DNA of 64,000 nucleotides, taken from Hyalangium gracile (GTDB taxonomy: Bacteria; Myxococcota; Myxococcia; Myxococcales; Myxococcaceae). Under the pieces are notes generated by a model. That model had not been told where the DNA came from and ran no database searches. It was given only the letters and a program-made list of their open reading frames with translations. Shown one piece after another: positions 34,500 to 49,510 of this stretch (position 1 is its first letter; every line of letters begins with the position of its first letter). The position numbers and the translations under genes were made by a program. The stretch is taken from contig NZ_JAHXBG010000006.1 of the NCBI RefSeq assembly GCF_020103725.1, positions 62,001-126,000 on the forward strand. The letters run 5' to 3'.

Positions 34500-34970
34500 T
34501 CAAACTTCCTCGTCGGGCAAGAGCGTGCGGAGCAACTCGTCGTCGGGTCCGAGCGGGCGCCAACCTGGCGGCGGCGGAGTGGCGCGGAGCGCTGCTCTGG
34601 CCTGCTTGACTCGCTCCTTATGAGTATCAGGGGTGTCGGCAGACCAGCAACCAAGCGCCTTGGCCACCTGGAAACGGGACTCGTCGTCCATCACCGCCGG
34701 CCAGCCATTGGGAAGACTCTCGGACAGTTCGCGCACGAGCACGTCGCGCACGAAACGCGTGACCTGCTTGCGCTGCTCAGCCTCGGCATGCAATCCGCCC
34801 AACACCTGCACCCCGGCAATGTCGTCCTTGCCGAGTTCCGCGGCGAGCTGATTCAGGGGGACAGCAGGGCGTGCCTCGGCAAAGGCGGTGAGCGAATCGT
34901 AACCGCGCTCGCGCACGCGCTCATAAAGGCGGGCCTTCCAGTTGCCCTGCCATGAACGCCCATCGGTCAT
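34500..34970 (-). CDS. Putative immunity protein for the SitA-like toxin
   Basis: A 156-residue soluble, mostly helical protein starting MTDGRSWQGNWKARLYERVRERGYDSLTAF. Homologues in myxobacteria are often labelled NUDIX hydrolase, but no Nudix box (GX5EX7REUXEEXGU) is present, so that label is not supported. Its ATG overlaps the TGA of the upstream toxin gene (ATGA), and the gene ends right at a tRNA-like repeat, the position expected for a cognate cytoplasmic immunity protein. Function is inferred from position. Confidence 0.72.
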   Translation of the reverse strand: MTDGRSWQGNWKARLYERVRERGYDSLTAFAEARPAVPLNQLAAELGKDDIAGVQVLGGLHAEAEQRKQVTRFVRDVLVRELSESLPNGWPAVMDDESRFQVAKALGCWSADTPDTHKERVKQARAALRATPPPPGWRPLGPDDELLRTLLPDEEV

Positions 34971-36394
34971 CCCCGTCCCCCTTGAATGAACTTCATCGGG
35001 ATGTCGTAGCGCTTCATGCGAGCTGCGACAATGTTCAGGATCTCATTCCGGGTCAACTGCCGCCCGGCTTCAACTTCAGCCTCACCCAGCGCCTCCATGA
35101 GCATCCGGTTCCATTCGTTGGGCCAAGTGCGTCCCAGGCGCCAGTTGCCCCCACCGTGAATCGCCTGATGGTGTGCCTGCTCCAGCCGGACGCAGAACTT
35201 GTCGATGTCCATGTCGCCCCTGAATCCACGCTGCTCGAACCACGCGCGGAACTCTTTCGGCAGGACGTGGTGCTTCGGTGCCTTGGACATTCCCGCCCCT
35301 GCTCCGTCAGTCACCCGCATGCCGCGCACTTCGGGACTTTCACCCAGCGCGTCACGTACACCCTTCGGCAGGTCCCCGTTCGCCTGCGCCATCATCACCT
35401 GACCGCCGTGGATGCGGACGGCGGCGCTGATGGCTGGGAGGGAGAGGACACCCGCCTGAACGAGCCGGCGGATCATCTCCACCCACTCAGCGGAGACGAC
35501 AATCTGCGAGCCCGCCATCACGCCGCCCGAGCCCATCACGAGGCCCACGCCGAGCGAGGCAGGAACGGCGGGCGGCAGTCGTGGCAGCGACATCCTCAGT
35601 GCCGAGGCCAGCGTGAGCATCTCCACGAGTTGCGCCGCCGCCATGATCCTTCCGCTGTTCTCCATTGCTATGCGTGCGCCGTCACGGATGGAACCGAACT
35701 CGCGGGTAAGCTTGCCCATCAACTCGGGCATCTCCGTGGCCGCGGCCTCGACCTTCTCCGGATCCTGTGACGCGAGCGCCCAAAGGGTGGGCTCTATCAG
35801 CTGTTGCACACGGTGCATGTCCATGAACAGCCTCTCGGTGCTGTAGGCAGGGCACTCTCGAAGCACGATGTCGGCGAGTCGTAGGAAGTCGAGCCATGTG
35901 GCGAGCAGCATGGAGCCGAACATGGCCGACTCGAGCCGGGGGCCGGTGAGACGCAAGAGAGCGTGGCCCATCTCTGGGTCTTCTACCTGCCACGCAGCGT
36001 CAGCCAGCGTGGAGACGCTCCGCAGATGACCGTAAAGCCAGTGCAACTGGTCCGAGCCATAACCGACGTGGCGGCTGAACACACCATTGGCCCGGCCGCC
36101 GAGGCTGCTGCCATCCTCGAGCTGGCGGAGCGAGTCGGCGATGCCAGCCGTGGAGCGCTCCACGTCATTGAGGACACCAAGGATGGCTTGCCGGGTCTGG
36201 GTGACGAGCTGACGCCCAGCCGCTGAAGTCGTGGGAGGCGACGGCTCCCTGGTGGAAAACGAACGGAGCGCAGGTCCCATCTCCTGCCGATAGGTGGTGG
36301 CTACCCCAGAGGGAAGTCCGGTACGTCCCTCGCCCGTCGCACAGCTGGTGAGCAATGCAGTGATGCATCCCAACCCGATGGCTGTCAGCCTCAT
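34967..36394 (-). CDS. SitA-like (DUF2380-type) lipoprotein toxin
   Basis: A 475-residue protein with signal peptide and lipobox (ALLTSC, Cys18), a mostly helical middle with a hydrophobic stretch (~275-330), and a C-terminal ~100-residue domain with paired histidines: PKHHVLP (375-376), AHHQAIHGGGNW (408-413) and a WNRML helix. That His-rich end fits HNH/AHH-like nuclease toxins. Sit toxins are lipoproteins passed between myxobacterial cells by TraA/TraB outer-membrane exchange, and kill recipients lacking the immunity gene. The downstream overlapping gene is the likely immunity. Nuclease activity is inferred from the histidine pattern. Confidence 0.78.
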   Translation of the reverse strand: MRLTAIGLGCITALLTSCATGEGRTGLPSGVATTYRQEMGPALRSFSTREPSPPTTSAAGRQLVTQTRQAILGVLNDVERSTAGIADSLRQLEDGSSLGGRANGVFSRHVGYGSDQLHWLYGHLRSVSTLADAAWQVEDPEMGHALLRLTGPRLESAMFGSMLLATWLDFLRLADIVLRECPAYSTERLFMDMHRVQQLIEPTLWALASQDPEKVEAAATEMPELMGKLTREFGSIRDGARIAMENSGRIMAAAQLVEMLTLASALRMSLPRLPPAVPASLGVGLVMGSGGVMAGSQIVVSAEWVEMIRRLVQAGVLSLPAISAAVRIHGGQVMMAQANGDLPKGVRDALGESPEVRGMRVTDGAGAGMSKAPKHHVLPKEFRAWFEQRGFRGDMDIDKFCVRLEQAHHQAIHGGGNWRLGRTWPNEWNRMLMEALGEAEVEAGRQLTRNEILNIVAARMKRYDIPMKFIQGGRG

Positions 36395-39577: not shown

Positions 39578-40810
39578 ATGGGCGCGCATCCAGAAGTGGA
39601 CCCGGCGGTCGCCAGGTTCCTCCGCTGGCTCGAGCAGGGCGGATCCCAGATCTCCAAGGTCCACATCGTCACCCCGGAGGGAGGCGAGCGGGGCGTTCTG
39701 GCCCTGGACGACATCGCTCCGGGAGAGACGCTCCTGCGCATTCCCCGCCGGCACGTGCTGACGGTGGAGGACGTCCGAGCCTCCGAGATGGGCCAGCTCC
39801 TCGATGCCCACGCCCAGCTCGACGAGGAGCGGACCTACCTGTCCGCCTTCCTCCTCCAGGAGCGGGAGCGGGGGGAGGACTCCTTCTGGAAGCCCTTCCT
39901 GGACATGCTGCCGAAGGCCTTCCCCTCGCACCCGTTCTTCTTCGAGGAGCACGAGCTGGCGCTGCTGCAGGGCTCCTTCCTGGCGGGGATGGTCGGGATT
40001 CAGCAGCGGATCGTCGCGGAGCGGTACGTGCACCTGAGCCAGCACGTCCCCGGGTTCAACCGGTTCACCTTCGACGCGTTCGTCTGGGCGCACTTCGCGG
40101 TGGTGACGCGCACCTTCACCATGACGCGGAGCGGCTCCCACGCCTCGTGCCTGGTGCCGCTGGTGGACATGATCAACGACGGCAGGCCGTGGGACAGCCC
40201 CTGGGCCTGGCTGGAGGAGGAGCAGTGCTTCCAGGTGAAGAGCCTGGGCGCCGTGGCGGCGGGCCAGGAGCTGCACACCACCTACGGCAACAAGAGCAAC
40301 CTGAGCCTCCTGCTCCAGTACGGCTACGTGCACGAGGACAACGCGCACGACGAGGTGCTGCTGCTGCTGGGCATTCCTCCGGGCGATGCCTTCACCGCGG
40401 AGAAGCAGCGGCTGCTGGGGCTCTCCTCGCCGGACGAGCAGCGCTCCTTCAAGCTGTCGCGCACCTATGACGCCGAGGCGATGGCCGAGCTGTTCGCCTT
40501 CCTGCGGATAGCCCAGGCGGAGGCCGGGGAGCTCTCCGTGCTCGAGGCCGCACCCGATGCGCTCGCCCTCGCCCGGGCGCCGCTGAGCCCGCGCAACGAG
40601 GAGAAGCTCCACGCCGCCTTCGCCGCCGGCTGCGAGAAGCGGCTGGCCGGCTACGCCACCTCGCTGGAGGAGGATGAGCGACTCCTCCGGGAAGAGGCGC
40701 TCTCGCCCAACGCACGCAACTGCATCCTGCTGCGGCGCGGCGAGAAGCGGCTCCTCCAGTCGTACGCCGTGCGCGCACGCGCGGGTTTTCCTTCGCTCGG
40801 GTCTGACTGA
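39578..40810 (+). CDS. Eukaryote-like SET-domain protein (SETD3/SETD6/RLSMT type)
   Basis: A 410-residue protein. The N-terminal part ([25 protein letters not shown]) is the start of a split SET domain. An inserted helical region follows, then [33 protein letters not shown] (194-205) and [18 protein letters not shown] (234-251), with a Rubs_subs-bind-like C-terminal domain. These motifs define the SETD3/Rubisco-methyltransferase class, which methylates lysine or histidine in proteins using S-adenosylmethionine. The near-invariant Asn-His of the NH box is Asn-Asp here (200-201), while the catalytic Tyr236 is present. Divergent from the AIM24 gene (85 bp apart). Substrate unknown. Confidence 0.82.
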
Positions 40811-40901: not shown

Positions 40902-40927
40902 AGGGCTCCACCTTCGGTGGAGGCCCT
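40902..40927 (+). promoter_or_regulatory. Hairpin covering the ribosome binding site of the DUF4157 gene
   Basis: AGGGCTCCACC and GGTGGAGGCCCT pair over 11 bp with one bulge around a TTC loop. The 3' arm contains the Shine-Dalgarno stretch GGTGGAGG (40916-40923), and the stem ends 2 nt before ATG 40930. A folded mRNA would hide the ribosome binding site. Confidence 0.55.
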
Positions 40928-40929
40928 GC

Positions 40930-43224
40930 ATGTTCTCTTCGGATCGAAAGCCACCCGCGTCGAACTCGGCTCCTCCTTCACCGAAGGCCGCTTCGCCGAG
41001 TCCCGCGAAGGCTCCCCTCGTGGATCCGGTGTCGCTCCAGCTCGCCCTGCTGAGCCGCTCCAGGGCCGACGCTCCGGGCGGGACGGCCGCACCTGTGGTC
41101 CAACGCAAGCCGACCGTCAGCTCTCCCGGGAGCCCGCTCGAGCGCGAGGCGGACGAGGTGGCCGAGCAGGTGATGCGGATGGCGGAGCCGGCGCCCATCG
41201 GATCGGCGCCACTGGCCATCCAGCGCCTCTGCTCGGAGGCGGATGACGAGGAGCATATGATTCACCCCAAGCGGGAGGGCACGCCGGGAGTCGAGACGGC
41301 GCGGAACGTGGAGACCGCCGTCCGCGCGGCGGAGCACGGCGGAGCGCCGCTGCCGGGCACGGTGCGGTCCCAGTTCGAGCCGCGCTTCGGGCAGGACTTC
41401 AGCCAGGTGCGAGTGCATGTCGGCAGCCAGGCGGCGGAGGCGGCGCGCGCGGTGCAGGCTCGCGCGTATACGGTCGGCCGCGACATCGTCTTCGGCTCTG
41501 GCCAGTACCAGCCGGACACCGAGGGGGGACGTCGGCTCCTGGCGCACGAGCTCACTCACGTGGTGCAGCAGGGCGGAGCTCCGGAGCAGCCCGCAGCACG
41601 GCCGGCTTCGTCGGATGCCTCGGTGGCCATCCGGCGGCATTCGGCTGCTCCCTTCATCGGACGCGACAACACCCGCGAGACGACGGCCGTCATGCGCACC
41701 GGCACGGTGCGGGGCTCTGGCCTGCAGTTCTGGCCGCTCCAGGTGACCAGCACGCGGATCGGTCCCGTCTCGGGCCAGGGGGGCCTGCTCAATGACAGGC
41801 GCAACCGGCTGTCGGTCATCGTCGCTCCGACGATGACGCTGAAGAGCATCGCCACGCTCCTCCTGCCGCTGTGGAACTCCGCGGAGCCGTTCACGCCGCC
41901 AGGCGCCACCGCCCCCCTCGTCACCGGGCCTATCACCGCCGAGGAGCTCGCGCGCGGGCTGCTGGTCTACAACCGCTACTACCTTCGTGTGCTCTCGGAG
42001 CCGACGCCGTCGATGACCGGATGGACGGGCGGGCTGCGCTTCCCGCTGCCCGTCGAGATCGACGACACCGGTGTGGCCACCGTGAACAAGGACCTGCTCC
42101 AGCAGATGGCCTCGGGGTTCGATGCGGCCTGGGCTCCGCTGATCGAGCGGCCCGCCGCGGCGGTCGCCACGCCACCAGCGGCAGACCTCCAGCGCTCCGT
42201 CACGGAGTTCCTGACCGCCACCCCGGACACCGACAGCCGGGGGATGGCACTCGCCTCGCGCACCGTCACCAACCCGGTCGAGGCGCGCCCCTTCGTGCTC
42301 GAGGTCTTCAACCAGCTCGGGGCCGGAAGGTTCGACGTCGCGCTGGCGTTCATGGATGCCTCGGTCAACACGCGCATCTCGCTGCTGGCCTCCCAGCGGG
42401 ACGGCGCGGCCGTGCTCGGCGCGATCAACACCGCGCTCTCCTCCCCACCCGCGGAGCTCTCGCCGCGGCAGCAGGAGAGCCTGTCGCGAGCCCAGACCAT
42501 GCTCGGGCTCGTCTCCGGCATCGTGGCGCGGGAGGCGCCCACGTTCGGCCTCCCCACGCCCTCGGGAGGGACGGGAGGCACGCCCTTCCCCGATACCCAG
42601 CTTCGGGCCTTCGGCACCGCCGAACAGACAGCCTTCAAGCGACAGGTGTACAACGCCCACGTCGCGGCGGCTCGCGCGCGGGGACGCGTGTTCAACATGG
42701 ACCTCGCGGAGGATCAGCTCGCGCCCATCGAGGGGGGAGGCCGGCTGCACCGGGATGCGGCACCCTTCCTGACGCAGATGCTCGCGGCGGCGCGGGCCGA
42801 TCTCCAGGCGGCGCGGACCGCCAACGAAGCGCTCGCCCTGGGGGCGACGAGCATCGGAGTGGGCTCGGCCTATCGCAGCGCCACGCAGGAGCTCACCATC
42901 TGGGAGGACCTCTTCCCCCAGTACTACGCGGCCACGGCGGGGGACCGTGCCACCGCGGAGGGGGGCGAGCACGGGGCGGCTGCGGTGCGGGTCATGGTGG
43001 CCCACTACACGACGCGCAAGGCCGCCCCCGGGTTCGGCAATCACACCAACGGCATCGCGGTGGACTTCACCACCACCCAGGGAGGGGCCGCGCTGGGGGC
43101 GAACACGTCCCAGAACGAGCTATGGAGGGCCTCCTGGTTCCACGCCTGGCTCGTGGCGCACGCCTCGCAATACCACTTCCAGCCGTTGGCGAGCGAGGCG
43201 TGGCACTGGGAATACCGGCCGTGA
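40930..43224 (+). CDS. DUF4157 (eCIS-core) protein fused to M15/VanY-type peptidase
   Basis: A 764-residue protein without signal peptide. Residues ~55-100 carry VVQRK and AIQRL elements, then the DUF4157 domain (~137-215) with LPGTVRSQFEPRFGQDFSQVRVHV and HELTH (206-210, HExxH metal motif). DUF4157 marks proteins loaded in contractile injection systems and many polymorphic toxins. A long helical middle follows (~300-640). The C-terminus is M15/VanY-like: SAYRS, NHTNGIAVDF (His705, Asp712) and EAWHWEY (Glu756, His759), the zinc ligands and catalytic Glu of D,D- or L,D-carboxypeptidases. A peptidoglycan-cutting effector is inferred. The start has GGTGGAGG inside a hairpin. Confidence 0.82.
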   Translation: MFSSDRKPPASNSAPPSPKAASPSPAKAPLVDPVSLQLALLSRSRADAPGGTAAPVVQRKPTVSSPGSPLEREADEVAEQVMRMAEPAPIGSAPLAIQRLCSEADDEEHMIHPKREGTPGVETARNVETAVRAAEHGGAPLPGTVRSQFEPRFGQDFSQVRVHVGSQAAEAARAVQARAYTVGRDIVFGSGQYQPDTEGGRRLLAHELTHVVQQGGAPEQPAARPASSDASVAIRRHSAAPFIGRDNTRETTAVMRTGTVRGSGLQFWPLQVTSTRIGPVSGQGGLLNDRRNRLSVIVAPTMTLKSIATLLLPLWNSAEPFTPPGATAPLVTGPITAEELARGLLVYNRYYLRVLSEPTPSMTGWTGGLRFPLPVEIDDTGVATVNKDLLQQMASGFDAAWAPLIERPAAAVATPPAADLQRSVTEFLTATPDTDSRGMALASRTVTNPVEARPFVLEVFNQLGAGRFDVALAFMDASVNTRISLLASQRDGAAVLGAINTALSSPPAELSPRQQESLSRAQTMLGLVSGIVAREAPTFGLPTPSGGTGGTPFPDTQLRAFGTAEQTAFKRQVYNAHVAAARARGRVFNMDLAEDQLAPIEGGGRLHRDAAPFLTQMLAAARADLQAARTANEALALGATSIGVGSAYRSATQELTIWEDLFPQYYAATAGDRATAEGGEHGAAAVRVMVAHYTTRKAAPGFGNHTNGIAVDFTTTQGGAALGANTSQNELWRASWFHAWLVAHASQYHFQPLASEAWHWEYRP

Positions 43225-43234
43225 CGCGGCGGCT

Positions 43235-43756
43235 TCAGCGCGCCGCGTGCTCCGCCACGGTGATGGCCCACCAGGGCCCCTGGGATTGGCCGAAGAGCGC
43301 GCTCCAGTACCACTCCGTCACATCCGTCCACCGCCCGCCCGGCTCGGCGGTGATGGCCTCGCGCACCACGAGGCGCGAGTCGCCTCGGGCGGCGATGAAC
43401 CGCTGCCAGGGCTGGCCATCCTCCCGACGCCAGAGCGTGGCTGGAGTAATGGAGTACCCGAGCCCCCGGAAGCAGTCCTCCGTGGAGTGGAGCTGGCGCG
43501 TGGGGACCGCCACCCACCGGATGACCAGCACGCGCTGTCCATCCGTGAAGCGAGCGATGCGCCCGGGGAAGCCCGCGTTGAACCGCTCTTCCAGCTCCGT
43601 CAGGGGCAGCGCCATCAGCGCCCGTCCCTCGAAGGTCGACGGCCAGCCTGGGAACGCCGTCGCCACGGGCTCGGGCTCGCGAGGCACGCGCCACAGGGGA
43701 GCGGTCGCCAGCAGCGCGCTCGAGAGCGCGAACGCCACCCATGCACCCCGGCTCAT
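43235..43756 (-). CDS. EpsI/DUF3485-like exosortase partner
   Basis: A 173-residue protein with an N-terminal membrane segment (WVAFALSSALLATAPLW) and a periplasmic domain with HSTEDCFRGLGY, matching the His/Cys signature of EpsI/DUF3485 proteins found fused to or beside exosortases. Its ATG overlaps the exosortase stop (ATGA). It probably assists sorting by the adjacent exosortase. It is the third and last gene of the sorting operon. Confidence 0.75.
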   Translation of the reverse strand: MSRGAWVAFALSSALLATAPLWRVPREPEPVATAFPGWPSTFEGRALMALPLTELEERFNAGFPGRIARFTDGQRVLVIRWVAVPTRQLHSTEDCFRGLGYSITPATLWRREDGQPWQRFIAARGDSRLVVREAITAEPGGRWTDVTEWYWSALFGQSQGPWWAITVAEHAAR

Positions 43757-44547
43757 GCGCGCGCCTCCGCTGCCCGCTGTCGCGAGCGCTGCCACAGACA
43801 GATGGCGGTGATGCATAGGCTGACCGGAATGAAGGCGCTCACTCCCACGGCATCATGGAGCCAGGAGATGTCCCATCCGCCCTGCTGATCGAGGAGGGTG
43901 AGCGAGCTCACCCGCACCGCGTTGCCGAGGAGGATGGCGCCCGTGGCCAGCACGCAGGCCACCATCGTCCTCAGCGCGCCGAGCTTCATCAGGCACGCCA
44001 GGGTGACAGCCAGGAACAGCCCCACCCAGAGCATGCGCGCGCCGCTGCACGGCGCATCCACGAGGGTGACCTTGGAGCCGATGACCAGGTGGAGGCCCTC
44101 GCGGACGGCGGGTAGCCCGATGCCGCGAAGCATGGGCGTGGCCAGCACGGCGGACACCAGGCGCAGCGGGTAGCCCAGGTAGAACTGCACCGTGGCGAGC
44201 ACGGGCATGGACAGCAGCGCCAGCAGCCAGGTGCCCAGGTGGAAGGCATGGCCGGAGGCCATCCGCGAGACGATGGCGGTGACGCACAGCAGGCACACCG
44301 CCGCGCGGACCAGGGGCGGCACCCAGGCCCAGGTCAGCACGAGCGCGAGGTTGACGCCCGCCAGCACGCCGACATCCAGGGGCCGCAGCGGGTGACGTGC
44401 CCCTCGAGGCAGCACCAGCGCCAGCGCGAGCAGGGCGAGCAGGCCCCACGGCTCCTGCGAGCCGTCCAGCACGCGCTGGACATACCAGCTCCAGGCGTGC
44501 CAGCCGGCGAGCAATTGCAGCAGGAGGATGAGGTGCGACGGCCCCAT
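43753..44547 (-). CDS. Exosortase (transmembrane sorting peptidase)
   Basis: A 264-residue protein with about seven membrane helices. The catalytic residues of exosortases are present: Cys167 in LVDAPCSGARMLW, Arg212 in NAVRVSSL and His231 in HDAVGVSAF. Exosortases recognise PEP-CTERM tails and cleave them near the membrane, in the way sortases act on LPXTG proteins. The gene directly upstream, whose stop overlaps this ATG (ATGA), ends in a PEP-CTERM tail and is the obvious dedicated substrate. The exact exosortase subtype was not assigned. Confidence 0.9.
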   Translation of the reverse strand: MGPSHLILLLQLLAGWHAWSWYVQRVLDGSQEPWGLLALLALALVLPRGARHPLRPLDVGVLAGVNLALVLTWAWVPPLVRAAVCLLCVTAIVSRMASGHAFHLGTWLLALLSMPVLATVQFYLGYPLRLVSAVLATPMLRGIGLPAVREGLHLVIGSKVTLVDAPCSGARMLWVGLFLAVTLACLMKLGALRTMVACVLATGAILLGNAVRVSSLTLLDQQGGWDISWLHDAVGVSAFIPVSLCITAICLWQRSRQRAAEARA

Positions 44548-47012
44548 CAAGCCTGCCGGCGGCGCAGGCGGAAGGCGATCACCAGCGCGCAGGCGACACC
44601 CAGGAGCATCCACGTCTCCGGCTCCGGCACGCTGGGCACGGAGTCCGGATCCACGGGCTTCAGGCCCGCCTCGTCATACTGCTCCTGGCGCTCGAGGACG
44701 ACGGCCCCCGTCACCTCCGTGACGAGCTGATGGCGGGAGGCCAGCTGGACGGCCTGGGCGCGCGGCTCCGGCTCATTCGTGGCAATCAGCCGGGAGACCT
44801 CCTCGCGGGCCCACAGGCGCGCCAGGTGCGGAGACGTCTTCCACGCGGACTCCGGAAGCTCCAGCCCCGCGCGGAGCATGCGCTCGCGGTGGACCTGGGG
44901 AGTGGCGTGGCCCCAGGAGGAGAACAGGTTCTTCAGGTCCTCCTCCAGCGTGCCCAGTCGCGGCACGGTGCGGAACGAGGCGTAGGGCGCGAGGTCCACC
45001 GCCATCTTGTTCGGGCCCTGTCCCACCATCACGTCGAGGAGCTCGGCGAGAGGCGCGGGCGTGGGCCACCTGCTGGCGGCGTACTCGCGCGAGGTGGTGT
45101 CGCCCGAGAGGCGCGGGGTTCCCAGCGGCTGAGGCCCGTGGACCCACACCGCGACGGTGCGCCCCTGGGGAGCCGCCAGTGACCACGCGCGGGCGAGCGC
45201 GGCGTTGGCATCCTGCCCGCCGACGGGGGACAGCTCCCTCACCCGCTCCGCCGCGCGCTGGAGCGCCGCTGCATCCGCCTTGCCCAGGGGCAGCAGCTCC
45301 TCCACGCCATCCCAGGCGGCCAGGACGGCCAGCTCCGTGCCCTGGGGGAAGGCGGACAGGGCGGCGGCGACCTGCGGCAGGGCGTCCTTCATTCCCGCCG
45401 AGGCATCCAGGATGAGCAGAACCCGCTCGGGCACCTCCGCCACGGTGTTGCGCACCTGCTGGCGCACCACATAGGCCGGGTCGAACATGTCCTCCGCCCA
45501 GGCGATGTCCGCGGCGCCCTTGCGCTGGACGGTGAGCACGGCCTGGGGCGGGACGAGCGCCTCGTCGCTCAGCGCGGCCAGCCACTCGCTCACCCCATCC
45601 TTGCGCTGCTCCAGGTTGCCACCGGCCGGCGTGGTGAGGGGACGCAGGGACTCGACGCGCACCACGTGCCGGAAGTCCTCGGCGATGTGGAAGTTGCGCT
45701 CGGCCAGGGTGGGCAGCGGCAGGGAGGCGAAGCGGCCCTCGTCCCGGGGCGCGAGCGGCGCGGTGATGCCGATTTTGATCTTCATCGGCGGCCCCTTGAC
45801 GATCGGGAAGCACTGGACCTGGATGCGATCCTTGCCCTTCTGGGTAATGAGCAGCGGATCCCTCCGGGCATGGACGACCTTCTGGTAGGCGGCGCGCACC
45901 TGCTTGGTGCTGGAGAAGGCGGCCTCGCGCTCCTGGCCGTCGATGTAGAGCGTCACCCGGGACACCACCGCGCCTGGCGGGAGGGCCACCTGGGTGCGAG
46001 CTTCGGCCTGGCCGGTGGCCGTCATCTCGAAGCTCATCGTCCACTCCAGGTACGCGAGCGCAGCGTCGCCATCCACCGCGCCCTTCATCTCCGAGCTGAC
46101 GAGGGACAGCCCGGGGACGCGGCCTCCGACATGCTCACCGCCCAGCTCCGAGTCCCAGCTGGAGGAGCGGAAGCCCTTGCCCCGGCGGAGGTTGTCCGGC
46201 TTGGGGACGGAATTGAACGTGCGCCCTGTCACCCGGTAGTAGGTGTCCCGCGCGTCCTCGGCGCTGATCTGCGAATCGAAGGACAGCAGGAAGGCCACGA
46301 GGCTGGAGCGCTTCACGCCGAGGTAGCTCGAGGCGAGCAGCGTCTCCTCGTCTCCCACCGAGCGCAGCCACTGCAGCCCCGCGCGGCGGGTCTCCGGCCG
46401 GGTGCCGTGCGTTGCGGCTTGCAGCGCCACCTGGGTCACCGCGCCCGTCACCTCCACGGTGGACAGCGCGAGCAGGGCAACCAAGGCCCCGTGCAACGGG
46501 CGCAGGGGAGAGGCGTGGTGTACCGCATGGAGCTTCTTCAGCCGGCGCCGCAGCACCAGGGCCGTGATGAAGGACAGGTGGGGCGAGAGCGGCAGCAGGC
46601 CCAGCCCGTAGATGATCACGCCGATGAAACCCAGGGGCGCGAACGGCAGGAAGATGAGGGAGTAGATGGTGCTCACCGCCAGCGCCATGCCGTTGAGGAG
46701 GATGGCGGCGCGCAGCAGGCGGGGGTTGCGCGTGTGCGAGTAGATCAGCGCCACGGCGTTGCCCAGCGGTACGCTGGCCACGAGCAGCGAGTGCACGTGG
46801 GTGGGCACCGGATCGAAGAACTCGCTGGCGCACCATGCCCAGGCCAGCTCGATGGTGAGCGTCGCCGCGGGCACGATGATGCCGAACAGGCACATGCAGG
46901 CCGTCCCGAACGTCGACCACTTGGGCTCTTCCTTGGCCGGGAAGGTGTGCAGCTTCACCGGCGGTTGGGAAGGCGGTTCGACGGGGAGGGGCTGTCTCGA
47001 GGGCTCGTTCAC
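44547..47012 (-). CDS. VIT/vWA membrane protein with PEP-CTERM tail
   Basis: An 821-residue protein. The start is GTG 47012 with GGAGA 5 nt upstream. After a Pro-rich leader come about five N-terminal membrane helices (~38-205). A VIT domain (~345-450; QVALPPGAVVSRVTLYIDGQ, then AAYQKVVHARRDP) and a vWA-like domain with a degenerate MIDAS (LLILDASAGMKD) follow. The C-terminus is a classical PEP-CTERM signal: VPEPETWMLLG, hydrophobic helix, then RLRRRQA. VIT/vWA proteins resemble inter-alpha-trypsin-inhibitor heavy chains and mediate adhesion. The N-terminal polytopic membrane domain is unusual for a sorted protein. Heads a three-gene sorting operon. Confidence 0.87.
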   Translation of the reverse strand: MNEPSRQPLPVEPPSQPPVKLHTFPAKEEPKWSTFGTACMCLFGIIVPAATLTIELAWAWCASEFFDPVPTHVHSLLVASVPLGNAVALIYSHTRNPRLLRAAILLNGMALAVSTIYSLIFLPFAPLGFIGVIIYGLGLLPLSPHLSFITALVLRRRLKKLHAVHHASPLRPLHGALVALLALSTVEVTGAVTQVALQAATHGTRPETRRAGLQWLRSVGDEETLLASSYLGVKRSSLVAFLLSFDSQISAEDARDTYYRVTGRTFNSVPKPDNLRRGKGFRSSSWDSELGGEHVGGRVPGLSLVSSEMKGAVDGDAALAYLEWTMSFEMTATGQAEARTQVALPPGAVVSRVTLYIDGQEREAAFSSTKQVRAAYQKVVHARRDPLLITQKGKDRIQVQCFPIVKGPPMKIKIGITAPLAPRDEGRFASLPLPTLAERNFHIAEDFRHVVRVESLRPLTTPAGGNLEQRKDGVSEWLAALSDEALVPPQAVLTVQRKGAADIAWAEDMFDPAYVVRQQVRNTVAEVPERVLLILDASAGMKDALPQVAAALSAFPQGTELAVLAAWDGVEELLPLGKADAAALQRAAERVRELSPVGGQDANAALARAWSLAAPQGRTVAVWVHGPQPLGTPRLSGDTTSREYAASRWPTPAPLAELLDVMVGQGPNKMAVDLAPYASFRTVPRLGTLEEDLKNLFSSWGHATPQVHRERMLRAGLELPESAWKTSPHLARLWAREEVSRLIATNEPEPRAQAVQLASRHQLVTEVTGAVVLERQEQYDEAGLKPVDPDSVPSVPEPETWMLLGVACALVIAFRLRRRQA

Positions 47013-47119
47013 GCGGATCTCCAGGCCGGAGCGGATCCTAGCCTGAGTGTCCCTCGGTCCGCCTGGGGGGCGCCATGCACACGCTCGGCGCATGGCGCTC
47101 CCTCTGGGAAGGACCGCCG

Positions 47120-49510
47120 CTAGAAGTCGAGCCCCTCGTACTTGTAGGCGAGCTGCAGGTAGGCCATGACGCCGCCCGGCGGGGAGCCGAGCTGGTCCAC
47201 GCCCCGGTTGTTGAAGACGTTGAGGACGTTGGCGCTCAGGGCCAGCCCGCTGTCGAAGGTGTAGCCGAGGGCGACGTCCGCCACGAAGCGAGCGGGGACC
47301 TTGCCTTCCTCGAAGAACACCGCGCTGTCCCACCGACCCGAGCGGAACTGGTAGGGCGTCTGGTACCGGCCGAAGACGCGCACGAAGGAGTTCCGCACCA
47401 GCAGGTTCTGCACGGTGACGGAGGCCTTGAGCTTCAGGTCCGGCACGTTCAGCAGGAGCGGAGGCTGGGTCGGGTCGCCGCTGCGGAAGCGCAGCAGCTT
47501 GATGTACGAGATGCTGCCGTTGAGGCTGATCTCGGGGGAGAGCTTGTACTCGGCGCCCAGGTCGGCTCCGGCCACGCGGGAGCGGCCGAAGTTGGAGTAG
47601 GTGGAGAGGGTGCCCTGCTGCGGGGTGCCCTCCGCCACGGGCGTGCCATCCGGGTAGAAGGCGAAGGTGCCGTTGGCGGGGTTGGCCCGCGAGGTCAGCG
47701 CGCTGATGAAGTTCTCGTACCACGAGTGGTAGGCGACGATGTCCACCAGGAGCTTCTCGGAGAAGGTCGCCTTGTAGCCGACCTCGACCGAGTCCACGCT
47801 CTCGGGCACCAGGGAGGGGATCTCCGAGAGCACGTTGCCCTCCGCGTCCTTGATGGTGAAGCCGGTCTTGTTGCCCAGCAGGACGTTGCTGATGAGCAGG
47901 TAGTTCTCCAGGATGGTGGGGCTCTTGAAGGCGCGGTTGTAGCCGAGCCGCAGGTGCTGGTTGCGGGTGGGGCTGTAGACGACGGCGGCCTTGGGGCTGA
48001 ACTGCGCCGAGTAGTCGGAGTGGGTGTCGAGCCGCGCGGCGGCCACCAGGCGGAGCTTGTCACGCAGCAGCGAGTAGTCGCCCTGCAGGTAGCCGCCGAT
48101 CTCCCGGGCGCTGAGCTTCTTGCCGTTCACGTCGGCCAGGTAGGAGCCCTCGGAGCTGGGGTTGTAGAGGCGCAGCTGGAGGCCGGTGATGAACTTCAAG
48201 CCGCCCAGCTGGTTCTGGTACTGCACCTCCGAGTCGAGCAGCTGGCTCTTGTCGATGAAGCGGATCTGATCCCTCACCGGATCCAGGGTGGAGGGGTCCT
48301 CCGGGGGGCCGCCATCGGGCTGCACCACGCTGGCGAGCCGGTCCAGCTGGTAGGTGCCGCCCGCGTTGCTGTAGGTGCGGGACACCTGGACGAACCAGTT
48401 GGGGTGGCTGGCGGACACCGTCTGCTGGTGCACCTGCCAGCCGCGCAGGTGGTTGCGGCCGGAGTTGGTGAGCGTCACGCCGTCGGTGAGCGAGAAGCCG
48501 TAGCCTCCCTTGAAGTTCCAGTCTCCCAGCCGGTAGTAGAGGAAGCCCTCGGCCTTGGCGGAGAGGACGTCGTAGTTCTTCAGCAGATCCCCCTCGAAGA
48601 CGAGCGGGCGGGCGGTGCTGCCGTAGTAGTGGGACTGCAGCTCGCGGCTGGGAGCGAAGTCGCGGCCGCGCAGCAGCTGGCCGTTGAACTTGTAGCCGAA
48701 GTCCTTGTTGACGGTGCCCGCCACGCGCGCGGAGCCGTCGATGAGCTGCTGGGTGCCGCCGCGCAGCGCCGCGGAGACGCCGGACTCATCCCACGGCGTC
48801 TTGGTGAGGACGTTGATGACGCCGGCGTGGGCGTTGGCGCCATAGAGGGCGGAGGCGGGGCCGACGACCACCTCCACGGACTTGATGTCGAGGTTGGGGG
48901 TGGGCAGCTGGGGGCCCAGCGGCAGGCCGCTGCCGGGGAGCTGGGCCAGCCGGCCGTCCATCATGGTGATCATCCGCGAGTTGAACTGGGTGTTGAAGCC
49001 GCGGGTGGAGATGCGCTTCTCGTTGATGCCGGTGTCCGCGTAGTCGATGCCCTTCACCGACGAGAGGGCGGCCATGTACGAGGTGCCGCCGCTCATCTGG
49101 ATGGTCTTGGCGTTGACGGACTCGACGGTGACGGGGGACTCGAGGCGCTTCTCGCCGAACTTCGAGCCGGTGACGACGATCTCCTCGCCGAACTGCTCAT
49201 CGAGCTTCAGGTCCGCCTCGATGGAGACGACCTTGCCGGCGACGACGTCCACGGACTGGGTGACGTCCGCGTAGCCGGGGAAGGAGATCTTCAGCTCGCG
49301 CTTGGAGGGAGGGACGTTGCGCAGCTCGAACTGGCCTTCGGCGTTGGTGGTGGCCGTCAGCTCGGTGCCCACCACCGTCACCTGGGCCTCGGGGAGCGGC
49401 TCGTTGCCCTCGACGTAGACCGTGCCCCGAACCGTCCCGCCCTCCTGGGCCCAGGCCGCTGCGCCCAGGCATAGCGAGACGACTATGACCCACTGCGTCA
49501 TGAGCTTCAT
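47120..49510 (-). CDS. TonB-dependent outer-membrane receptor
   Basis: A 796-residue protein with signal peptide (cleavage after AWA), an N-terminal carboxypeptidase-regulatory-like beta domain (~24-105; GTVRGTVYVEGNEPLPEAQVTVVG) and a plug domain (EIVVTGSKFGEKRLESPVTVESV onward, ~108-225). A 22-strand barrel follows, with the family C-terminal end FNNRGVDQLGS and LAYKYEGLDF. These receptors import siderophores, cobalamin or oligosaccharides using TonB energy. No neighbouring TonB/ExbB or transport gene gives a substrate. A ribosome binding site (GGGGG stretch) precedes the ATG at 49510. Confidence 0.92.
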   Translation of the reverse strand: MKLMTQWVIVVSLCLGAAAWAQEGGTVRGTVYVEGNEPLPEAQVTVVGTELTATTNAEGQFELRNVPPSKRELKISFPGYADVTQSVDVVAGKVVSIEADLKLDEQFGEEIVVTGSKFGEKRLESPVTVESVNAKTIQMSGGTSYMAALSSVKGIDYADTGINEKRISTRGFNTQFNSRMITMMDGRLAQLPGSGLPLGPQLPTPNLDIKSVEVVVGPASALYGANAHAGVINVLTKTPWDESGVSAALRGGTQQLIDGSARVAGTVNKDFGYKFNGQLLRGRDFAPSRELQSHYYGSTARPLVFEGDLLKNYDVLSAKAEGFLYYRLGDWNFKGGYGFSLTDGVTLTNSGRNHLRGWQVHQQTVSASHPNWFVQVSRTYSNAGGTYQLDRLASVVQPDGGPPEDPSTLDPVRDQIRFIDKSQLLDSEVQYQNQLGGLKFITGLQLRLYNPSSEGSYLADVNGKKLSAREIGGYLQGDYSLLRDKLRLVAAARLDTHSDYSAQFSPKAAVVYSPTRNQHLRLGYNRAFKSPTILENYLLISNVLLGNKTGFTIKDAEGNVLSEIPSLVPESVDSVEVGYKATFSEKLLVDIVAYHSWYENFISALTSRANPANGTFAFYPDGTPVAEGTPQQGTLSTYSNFGRSRVAGADLGAEYKLSPEISLNGSISYIKLLRFRSGDPTQPPLLLNVPDLKLKASVTVQNLLVRNSFVRVFGRYQTPYQFRSGRWDSAVFFEEGKVPARFVADVALGYTFDSGLALSANVLNVFNNRGVDQLGSPPGGVMAYLQLAYKYEGLDF

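What the first reader, a model, noticed from the sequence alone, without database searches (positions are those of the whole stretch)
40930..43224. DUF4157 protein carrying an M15/VanY-like peptidase: candidate injected or released cell-wall effector
The HELTH-bearing DUF4157 domain marks contractile-injection-system cargo and polymorphic toxins. The C-terminus keeps the full zinc site of D,D/L,D-carboxypeptidases (His705, Asp712, Glu756, His759). No immunity gene or secretion gene is adjacent, so delivery and self-protection are open questions.
Basis: partly seen in the sequence, partly recalled or inferred. Interest (0 to 1): 0.7.

Follow-up and report, generated by a model that had tools for sequence, protein, structure and literature searches.

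The report
Injection-type protein with cell-wall enzyme tail
A predatory soil bacterium carries a gene for a protein that looks like cargo of a phage-tail-like injection machine, ending in an enzyme of the kind that trims bacterial cell walls; relatives in other bacteria keep the same front and middle but end in different enzymes, and three of them sit inside injection-machine gene clusters.

Summary
Window 40930-43224 (+), 764 aa, carries eCIS_core/DUF4157 (120.7 bits, cut-off 22) and a C-terminal VanY/M15 domain (26.8, cut-off 25). R649, H705, D712, E756 and H759 are invariant in a 26-row alignment, and the predicted fold is VanY/LdcB-like. No CIS or immunity gene adjoins, but the same genome holds CIS clusters at three places.

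New here: residues ~231-535 are a middle module without a Pfam or NCBIfam name. A scan found 12 loci with it in several phyla. Nine of the 12 listed ORFs also carry eCIS_core; apart from the ortholog, all align to the window protein only up to residue 535 at most, then carry other tails: SLT transglycosylase, phage-type lysozyme, HExxH, and two unidentified types. In 3 of 12 loci the gene lies inside a CIS operon, directly after the AAA ATPase.

Best reading: an orphan cargo of a resident CIS, most likely the C5-type shared with Hyalangium versicolor, delivering a peptidoglycan peptidase into other bacteria. Loading, delivery, activity and toxicity are untested. DUF4157-toxin fusions are published; this M15 tail and tail-swapping module were not found in the searches made.

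The parts
40919..40923 (+). Shine-Dalgarno-like ggagg, 6 bases before the ATG
   Evidence: read from the sequence
40930..43224 (+). CDS, 764 aa: eCIS_core / middle module / VanY-M15
40930..41346 (+). residues 1-139: Ser/Pro/Ala-rich start without a hydrophobic signal segment
   Evidence: highest 19-residue hydropathy in the first 60 residues 0.77
41347..41580 (+). eCIS_core (PF13699, formerly DUF4157), residues 140-217
   Evidence: 120.7 bits
41545..41559 (+). HELTH motif, residues 206-210
41620..42534 (+). shared middle module, residues ~231-535; first part has a LysM-like string (TLxxIA...VYN...GLRFPLP), second part helical
   Evidence: no Pfam or NCBIfam match over cut-off; LysM comparison inconclusive
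42535..42846 (+). residues 536-639: between module and Pfam VanY match; the structural model of the tail starts at 555
42847..43218 (+). VanY/M15 domain, residues 640-763; R649, H705, D712, E756, H759

Best explanation
An orphan cargo protein of a contractile injection system. The disordered N-terminus, eCIS_core and middle module get it recognised and loaded in the cytoplasm (inferred); a resident CIS, most likely the C5-type cluster, carries it out and into another bacterium (inferred); there the C-terminal zinc M15 domain cuts peptidoglycan stem peptides in the periplasm or wall (fold and site shown, activity and substrate inferred). The tail is one of several exchangeable catalytic tails placed behind the same head and middle module (shown by sequence).
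For: eCIS_core 120.7 bits and VanY 26.8 bits. Site invariant in 26 rows. Model matches VanYB/LdcB/VanXY. Own genome: 7 eCIS_core places; C5 cluster with eCIS_core, Pvc16_N, sheath, tube, CIS_tube, Baseplate_J and AAA; C11 with AAA, gp25, Baseplate_J and tube; C25 with sheath, Phage_GPD/base_V and Baseplate_J. 12 loci carry the middle module; in 3 of 12 (L062, L064, L069) it lies in a CIS operon after the AAA gene. Tails are exchanged at residue ~525-535, two of them peptidoglycan hydrolases over cut-off (SLT 55.5, Phage_lysozyme 84.5 bits). H. versicolor, which has a full-length ortholog (74% identity), shares the C5 cluster at ~87% DNA identity over 24 kb, and its only 2 sheath matches lie in it. 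In 145 genomes of the order, 61 of 62 with eCIS_core at best E < 1e-9 also have a sheath match.
Against: The gene is not in or beside a CIS cluster and its context is not conserved in H. versicolor. Only 2 of 195 Myxococcota genomes have the full protein. Three of 12 genomes with the module gave no sheath match and one only a sub-cut-off match, though several are MAGs. The HExxH tails of 3 loci are not evident peptidoglycan hydrolases. A sheath match does not prove a CIS, because prophage tails match too, and the 145 genomes are related. The ATPases of the three CIS operons resemble the C11 ATPase more than the C5 one, while H. versicolor lacks a C11-type one. No expression, loading or toxicity data.
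Confidence: 0.6

Rival explanations
1. It acts on the producer's own wall: carried by the CIS or set free when the CIS fires, it helps lyse the producing cell or open its peptidoglycan, for particle release or programmed death during development.
For: A CIS is reported to be required for developmentally regulated cell death in Streptomyces (title and start of abstract, PMC10020575). M15 enzymes also trim a cell's own wall (recalled). No immunity gene adjoins, and the host genus is multicellular and developmental (recalled).
Against: Only 2 of 195 Myxococcota genomes have it, which is odd for a release or development function. Tails are exchanged between bacteria.
Confidence: 0.17
2. It is an effector of another route: type VI secretion, or passive release by lysis or vesicles. 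eCIS_core is not strictly tied to eCIS.
For: Danov et al. state that the domain is sometimes present in T6SS effectors (passage, PMC11297309); VgrG2b of Pseudomonas aeruginosa carries a metallopeptidase tail (passages, PMC6899460). The gene is distant from the CIS clusters.
Against: No VgrG, PAAR or other spike domain matched in the protein. Relatives sit in CIS operons. Presence of a T6SS in this genome was not tested.
Confidence: 0.13
3. A stranded cargo gene without present function: a horizontally gained orphan no longer loaded.
For: Patchy occurrence, unconserved context, and a tail-like remnant that has lost the zinc Asp in another genome of the family, G074.
Against: Intact frame with high GC3 (0.89), intact zinc site, and an intact ortholog at 74% identity.
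Confidence: 0.1

Closest known systems
eCIS-associated toxins (EATs) with DUF4157/eCIS_core (Geller 2021, PMC8213781; Danov 2024, PMC11297309; passages read)
   Same: N-terminal eCIS_core, long middle, C-terminal catalytic domain; often no immunity gene; a predicted peptidoglycan-hydrolase EAT (EAT10) was shown to be more toxic in the periplasm
   Different: VanY/M15 tail (terms 'vany' and 'm15' have 0 occurrences in both papers); gene far from any CIS cluster; a defined middle module shared across phyla; EAT10 itself is listed without DUF4157
Peptidase family M15 VanY/LdcB type (VanYB 5hnm/5zhf, LdcB 4ox3, BaLdcB 4mph)
   Same: Fold, zinc residues His/Asp/His, catalytic Glu, conserved Arg
   Different: Longer insertion before HxxGxAxD, fused behind eCIS_core and middle module, no export signal
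VgrG2b C-terminal metallopeptidase, T6SS (PMC6899460, passages)
   Same: zinc-metallopeptidase domain in an injected protein acting in the periplasm
   Different: There the metallopeptidase domain is the toxin on a VgrG spike with an adjacent immunity gene; here the HExxH domain is N-terminal, with no spike and no immunity gene

Membership tests
DUF4157-type eCIS-associated toxin | eCIS_core domain | tested here: met
   120.7 bits, cut-off 22
DUF4157-type eCIS-associated toxin | separate C-terminal enzymatic domain | tested here: met
   VanY 26.8 bits and M15 fold
DUF4157-type eCIS-associated toxin | genome encodes a CIS | tested here: met
   CIS clusters on C5, C11 and C25
DUF4157-type eCIS-associated toxin | gene within about ten genes of the CIS operon (typical, 88% in PMC11297309, not defining) | tested here: not met
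   no sheath match on the gene's contig C6; 3 of 12 relatives do lie inside CIS operons
DUF4157-type eCIS-associated toxin | loaded into the particle and toxic | not testable with these tools
   needs particles and cells
Peptidase family M15 (VanY/LdcB) | zinc site His, Asp, His plus catalytic Glu | tested here: met
   H705, D712, H759, E756 invariant in 26 rows
Peptidase family M15 (VanY/LdcB) | fold | tested here: met
   VIA Z 11-12, rmsd 2.5-3.0 over 129-142 residues with VanY, LdcB and VanXY
Peptidase family M15 (VanY/LdcB) | hydrolysis of peptidoglycan stem peptides | not testable with these tools
   assay needed
T6SS metallopeptidase effector (VgrG2b/Tpe type) | VgrG-fused or T6SS-linked, with adjacent immunity gene | tested here: not met
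   no such domain in the protein; neighbours are SET-type and exosortase genes
LysM domain (first part of the middle module) | significant profile match | tested here: inconclusive
   no Pfam LysM hit in 13 rows; hhalign probability 5.4%, 14 columns; predicted strand-helix-helix-strand order is compatible

The most novel reading that the evidence does not exclude
The ~300-residue middle module is an unnamed adapter of a cross-phylum family of polymorphic CIS cargo. Behind eCIS_core plus this module, bacteria exchange catalytic tails, several of them cell-wall hydrolases. In operon-borne members the gene follows the AAA ATPase, which would load it. The window gene is a distant member loaded in trans, used by a predatory myxobacterium to break prey walls from inside after injection.
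Probability: 0.4. Interest if true: 0.65.

Novelty: new variant of a known kind. Interest (0 to 1): 0.5.

Why it matters
How CIS cargo is recognised and what DUF4157 does are open questions in the papers read. A module that stays while tails change gives a concrete candidate for a loading or delivery part and a handle to predict orphan cargo away from CIS loci. A peptidoglycan peptidase cargo would also support bacteria, rather than only animal cells, as targets of myxobacterial CIS.

Tried and rejected
Middle module in viral contigs: 0 relatives; 11 pattern matches, none confirmed. Tail in phage records: no match. Whole protein in plasmids: 89 records, none with a place covering 80% or more of the query; the 20 rows shown match only within about residues 47-265. 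Own protein against PDB sequences, PADLOC and PHROGs: no hit; middle module against PDB sequences: no hit. Model of eCIS_core plus middle module (pLDDT 78.1, pTM 0.63): no Foldseek match at E <= 0.001; the VIA list is led by PUF-type helical repeats at Z up to 7.1, which the tool says may mean only a common arrangement; no fold is claimed. LysM: attractive by eye, not supported by profiles. A CIS reading of the weak sheath locus on C3 was dropped: it has DNA_circ_N, Phage_GPD and sheath domains and looks like a prophage tail. A toxin-immunity pair was dropped for want of a small neighbour gene. The unknown tails (L065/L066/L071 type and L070/L072 type) gave no convincing Pfam hit; my guess of a Cys-His hydrolase for the first rests on reading alone.

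The strong set is best E < 1e-9, although my comment in the script says 1e-8; at 1e-8 G132 would be a second exception (61 of 63). With any match it is 69 of 82. Phylogeny was not corrected for, and PF17482 also matches phage tails. Genes come from a simple home-made ORF picker. Two of the 12 loci (L061, L072) are genomes that supplied rows of the query alignment. Nine of the 12 ORFs carry eCIS_core: L061 and seven others by Pfam, and L068 by its HELVH-bearing ORF and its alignment to the window protein from residue 57 (it was not in the Pfam scan). L070 and L072 have no eCIS_core by Pfam; L071's listed ORF starts inside the module, so its upstream part is unknown. Of 41 viral loci, 29 non-redundant motif-bearing rows were extracted and 24 of these were put into the 26-row alignment.

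Full report
The observation. The frame 40930-43224 (+) gives 764 aa with a good ribosome-binding sequence at 40919-40923. Pfam finds eCIS_core (the renamed DUF4157) at 140-217 with 120.7 bits against a cut-off of 22, and VanY at 640-763 with 26.8 bits against 25. The VanY score is marginal, and the ortholog in H. versicolor falls below the cut-off at 23.0, so the tail was tested in two further ways. In an alignment of 26 rows, 24 of them M15 domains from viral contigs, R649, H705, D712, E756 and H759 are invariant. The predicted structure of 555-764 (pLDDT 85.0, pTM 0.77) matches VanYB, LdcB and VanXY best (Foldseek E 1.1e-6, TM about 0.5; VIA Z 11-12). Phage endolysins of the M15 type follow at Z about 8.

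Host and context. Kinship and contig length tie the closest genome (G082) to Hyalangium versicolor H56D21, so the window is most likely another Hyalangium (inference). The gene stands between a SET/Rubisco-LSMT-like gene and a convergent exosortase cluster. In H. versicolor the SET gene has its own ortholog (91% over 1234 bases) with no other homology to the window's 34-50 kb in the 10-kb stretch fetched around it, and the effector ortholog is on a different contig: the context is not conserved. No immunity or secretion gene adjoins.

Injection machinery. The genome has seven eCIS_core places and six matches to the sheath family. Cluster C5 (about 365-388 kb) has eCIS_core, Pvc16_N, sheath, two gp19 tube proteins, CIS_tube, Baseplate_J and an AAA ATPase; C11 has AAA, gp25, Baseplate_J and tube, with two sheath matches; C25 has sheath, a Phage_GPD/base_V hub and Baseplate_J. 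In H. versicolor only two sheath matches were found, both in a cluster that is 87% identical to C5 over 24 kb; its ATPase closest to the C11 query is the C5-type one. The C5-type machine is therefore the only one seen in both genomes that hold this cargo. Across 145 genomes of the order, 82 have eCIS_core, 79 a sheath C-terminal match and 69 both; of 62 with eCIS_core at E < 1e-9, 61 have a sheath. This is not corrected for relatedness.

The middle module. A search with residues 226-551 of the window protein and two relatives found the module in only 3 of 195 Myxococcota genomes, but a scan of 84,980 species genomes gave 12 loci: Opitutae, Chloroflexi, Sphingomonas, Syntrophobacteraceae (2), Gemmatimonadetes (2), a beta-proteobacterium, Bradyrhizobium, a gamma-proteobacterium, Citreicoccus and H. 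versicolor. In nine of the 12 listed ORFs eCIS_core precedes the module (Pfam for eight; L068 by its ORF and alignment only); two lack it (L070, L072), and one ORF (L071) begins inside the module. Every alignment to the window protein except the ortholog's stops at or before residue 535, at 525-535 where the partner runs that far (L068 is cut by its contig end at 475). Behind that point the tails fall into six groups without detectable similarity to each other: M15 (2), SLT (1; 55.5 bits), phage-type lysozyme (1; 84.5 bits), an HExxH type (3), an unidentified type with Cys and His (3 readable tails: L065, L066, L071; L068 is cut off), and a second unidentified type (2). This is the head-and-tail exchange of polymorphic toxins, here with a fixed middle part. 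In Pfam one of 13 rows gave one weak hit (E 0.024), and in NCBIfam three rows gave single weak hits (E 0.008-0.07); all look like chance.

Placement of relatives. With the Hyalangium CIS proteins as queries, three loci (L062 Opitutae, L064 Sphingomonas deserti, L069 Bradyrhizobium) show the order sheath, tube, AAA ATPase, cargo gene, then gp25 and Baseplate_J-type genes, supported by Pfam for sheath and AAA in L064, gp25 in L069 and Baseplate_J in L062. The cargo gene is directly after the ATPase in all three. The other nine loci show no such run of neighbours; five of them are on contigs under 20 kb that leave little to see. Nine of the 12 genomes have a sheath match, eight of them over the cut-off.

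How it probably works. Shown: domains, zinc site, predicted fold, tail exchange, CIS in the genome, relatives inside CIS operons. Inferred: the N-terminal half is the loading part; the protein stays in the cytoplasm (no hydrophobic N-terminus), is packed into a CIS, is injected into another bacterium, and cuts peptidoglycan peptides there. Whether it acts as D,D- or L,D-carboxypeptidase or as an endopeptidase cannot be told from the fold: the best structural rows are tied. A plain carboxypeptidase may weaken rather than kill, so toxicity is not assured.

What is known. Geller et al. 2021 (passages) named DUF4157 an eCIS core domain, described it at the N-terminus of multidomain toxins with long linkers, and showed a predicted peptidoglycan-hydrolase toxin, EAT10, to be far more toxic in the periplasm. 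Danov et al. 2024 (passages) found 36% of known eCIS toxins to hold DUF4157, 88% to lie within ten genes of the operon, and 68 predicted ones to have a peptidoglycan-binding domain. A seamount study suggested that eCIS helps Myxococcota prey (passages, PMC11937823). The searches listed no paper that I recognised as describing a DUF4157-M15 fusion or this middle module; supplements and preprints were not searched, and most listed papers were seen only as listings. The find is thus a new variant within a known kind.

Noticed in passing
window 43235-47723 (-): Exosortase (PF09721, 82.7 bits; nearest NCBIfam XrtQ, below its cut-off), a small partner resembling the C-terminal part of XrtT, and a VIT/MSEP-type protein with a PEP-CTERM-like end: possibly a dedicated one-target exosortase system.
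   Followed up: partly
window 34967-36394 (-): Protein with a weak match to SitA6 polymorphic toxin lipoproteins (24.5 bits, cut-off 85.75).
   Followed up: no
window 39578-40810 (+): SET/Rubisco-LSMT-like methyltransferase gene (Rubis-subs-bind 76.1 bits) in a bacterium, with a second, 49% identical copy in the same genome.
   Followed up: partly
L070 9827-11743 and L072 1709-3610: Middle module without eCIS_core by Pfam, followed by a ~327-aa unidentified tail shared at 45% identity.
   Followed up: partly
L022 (own genome C3, 407-426 kb): Prophage-like tail genes (DNA_circ_N, Phage_GPD, sheath).
   Followed up: partly
L084 3103-3558 (-): Remnant resembling the M15 tail in another genus of the family, with the zinc Asp of the HxxGxAxD motif lost.
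   Followed up: no
L026 4909-6699 (-) (own genome C42): eCIS_core domain combined with an OmpA domain.
   Followed up: no
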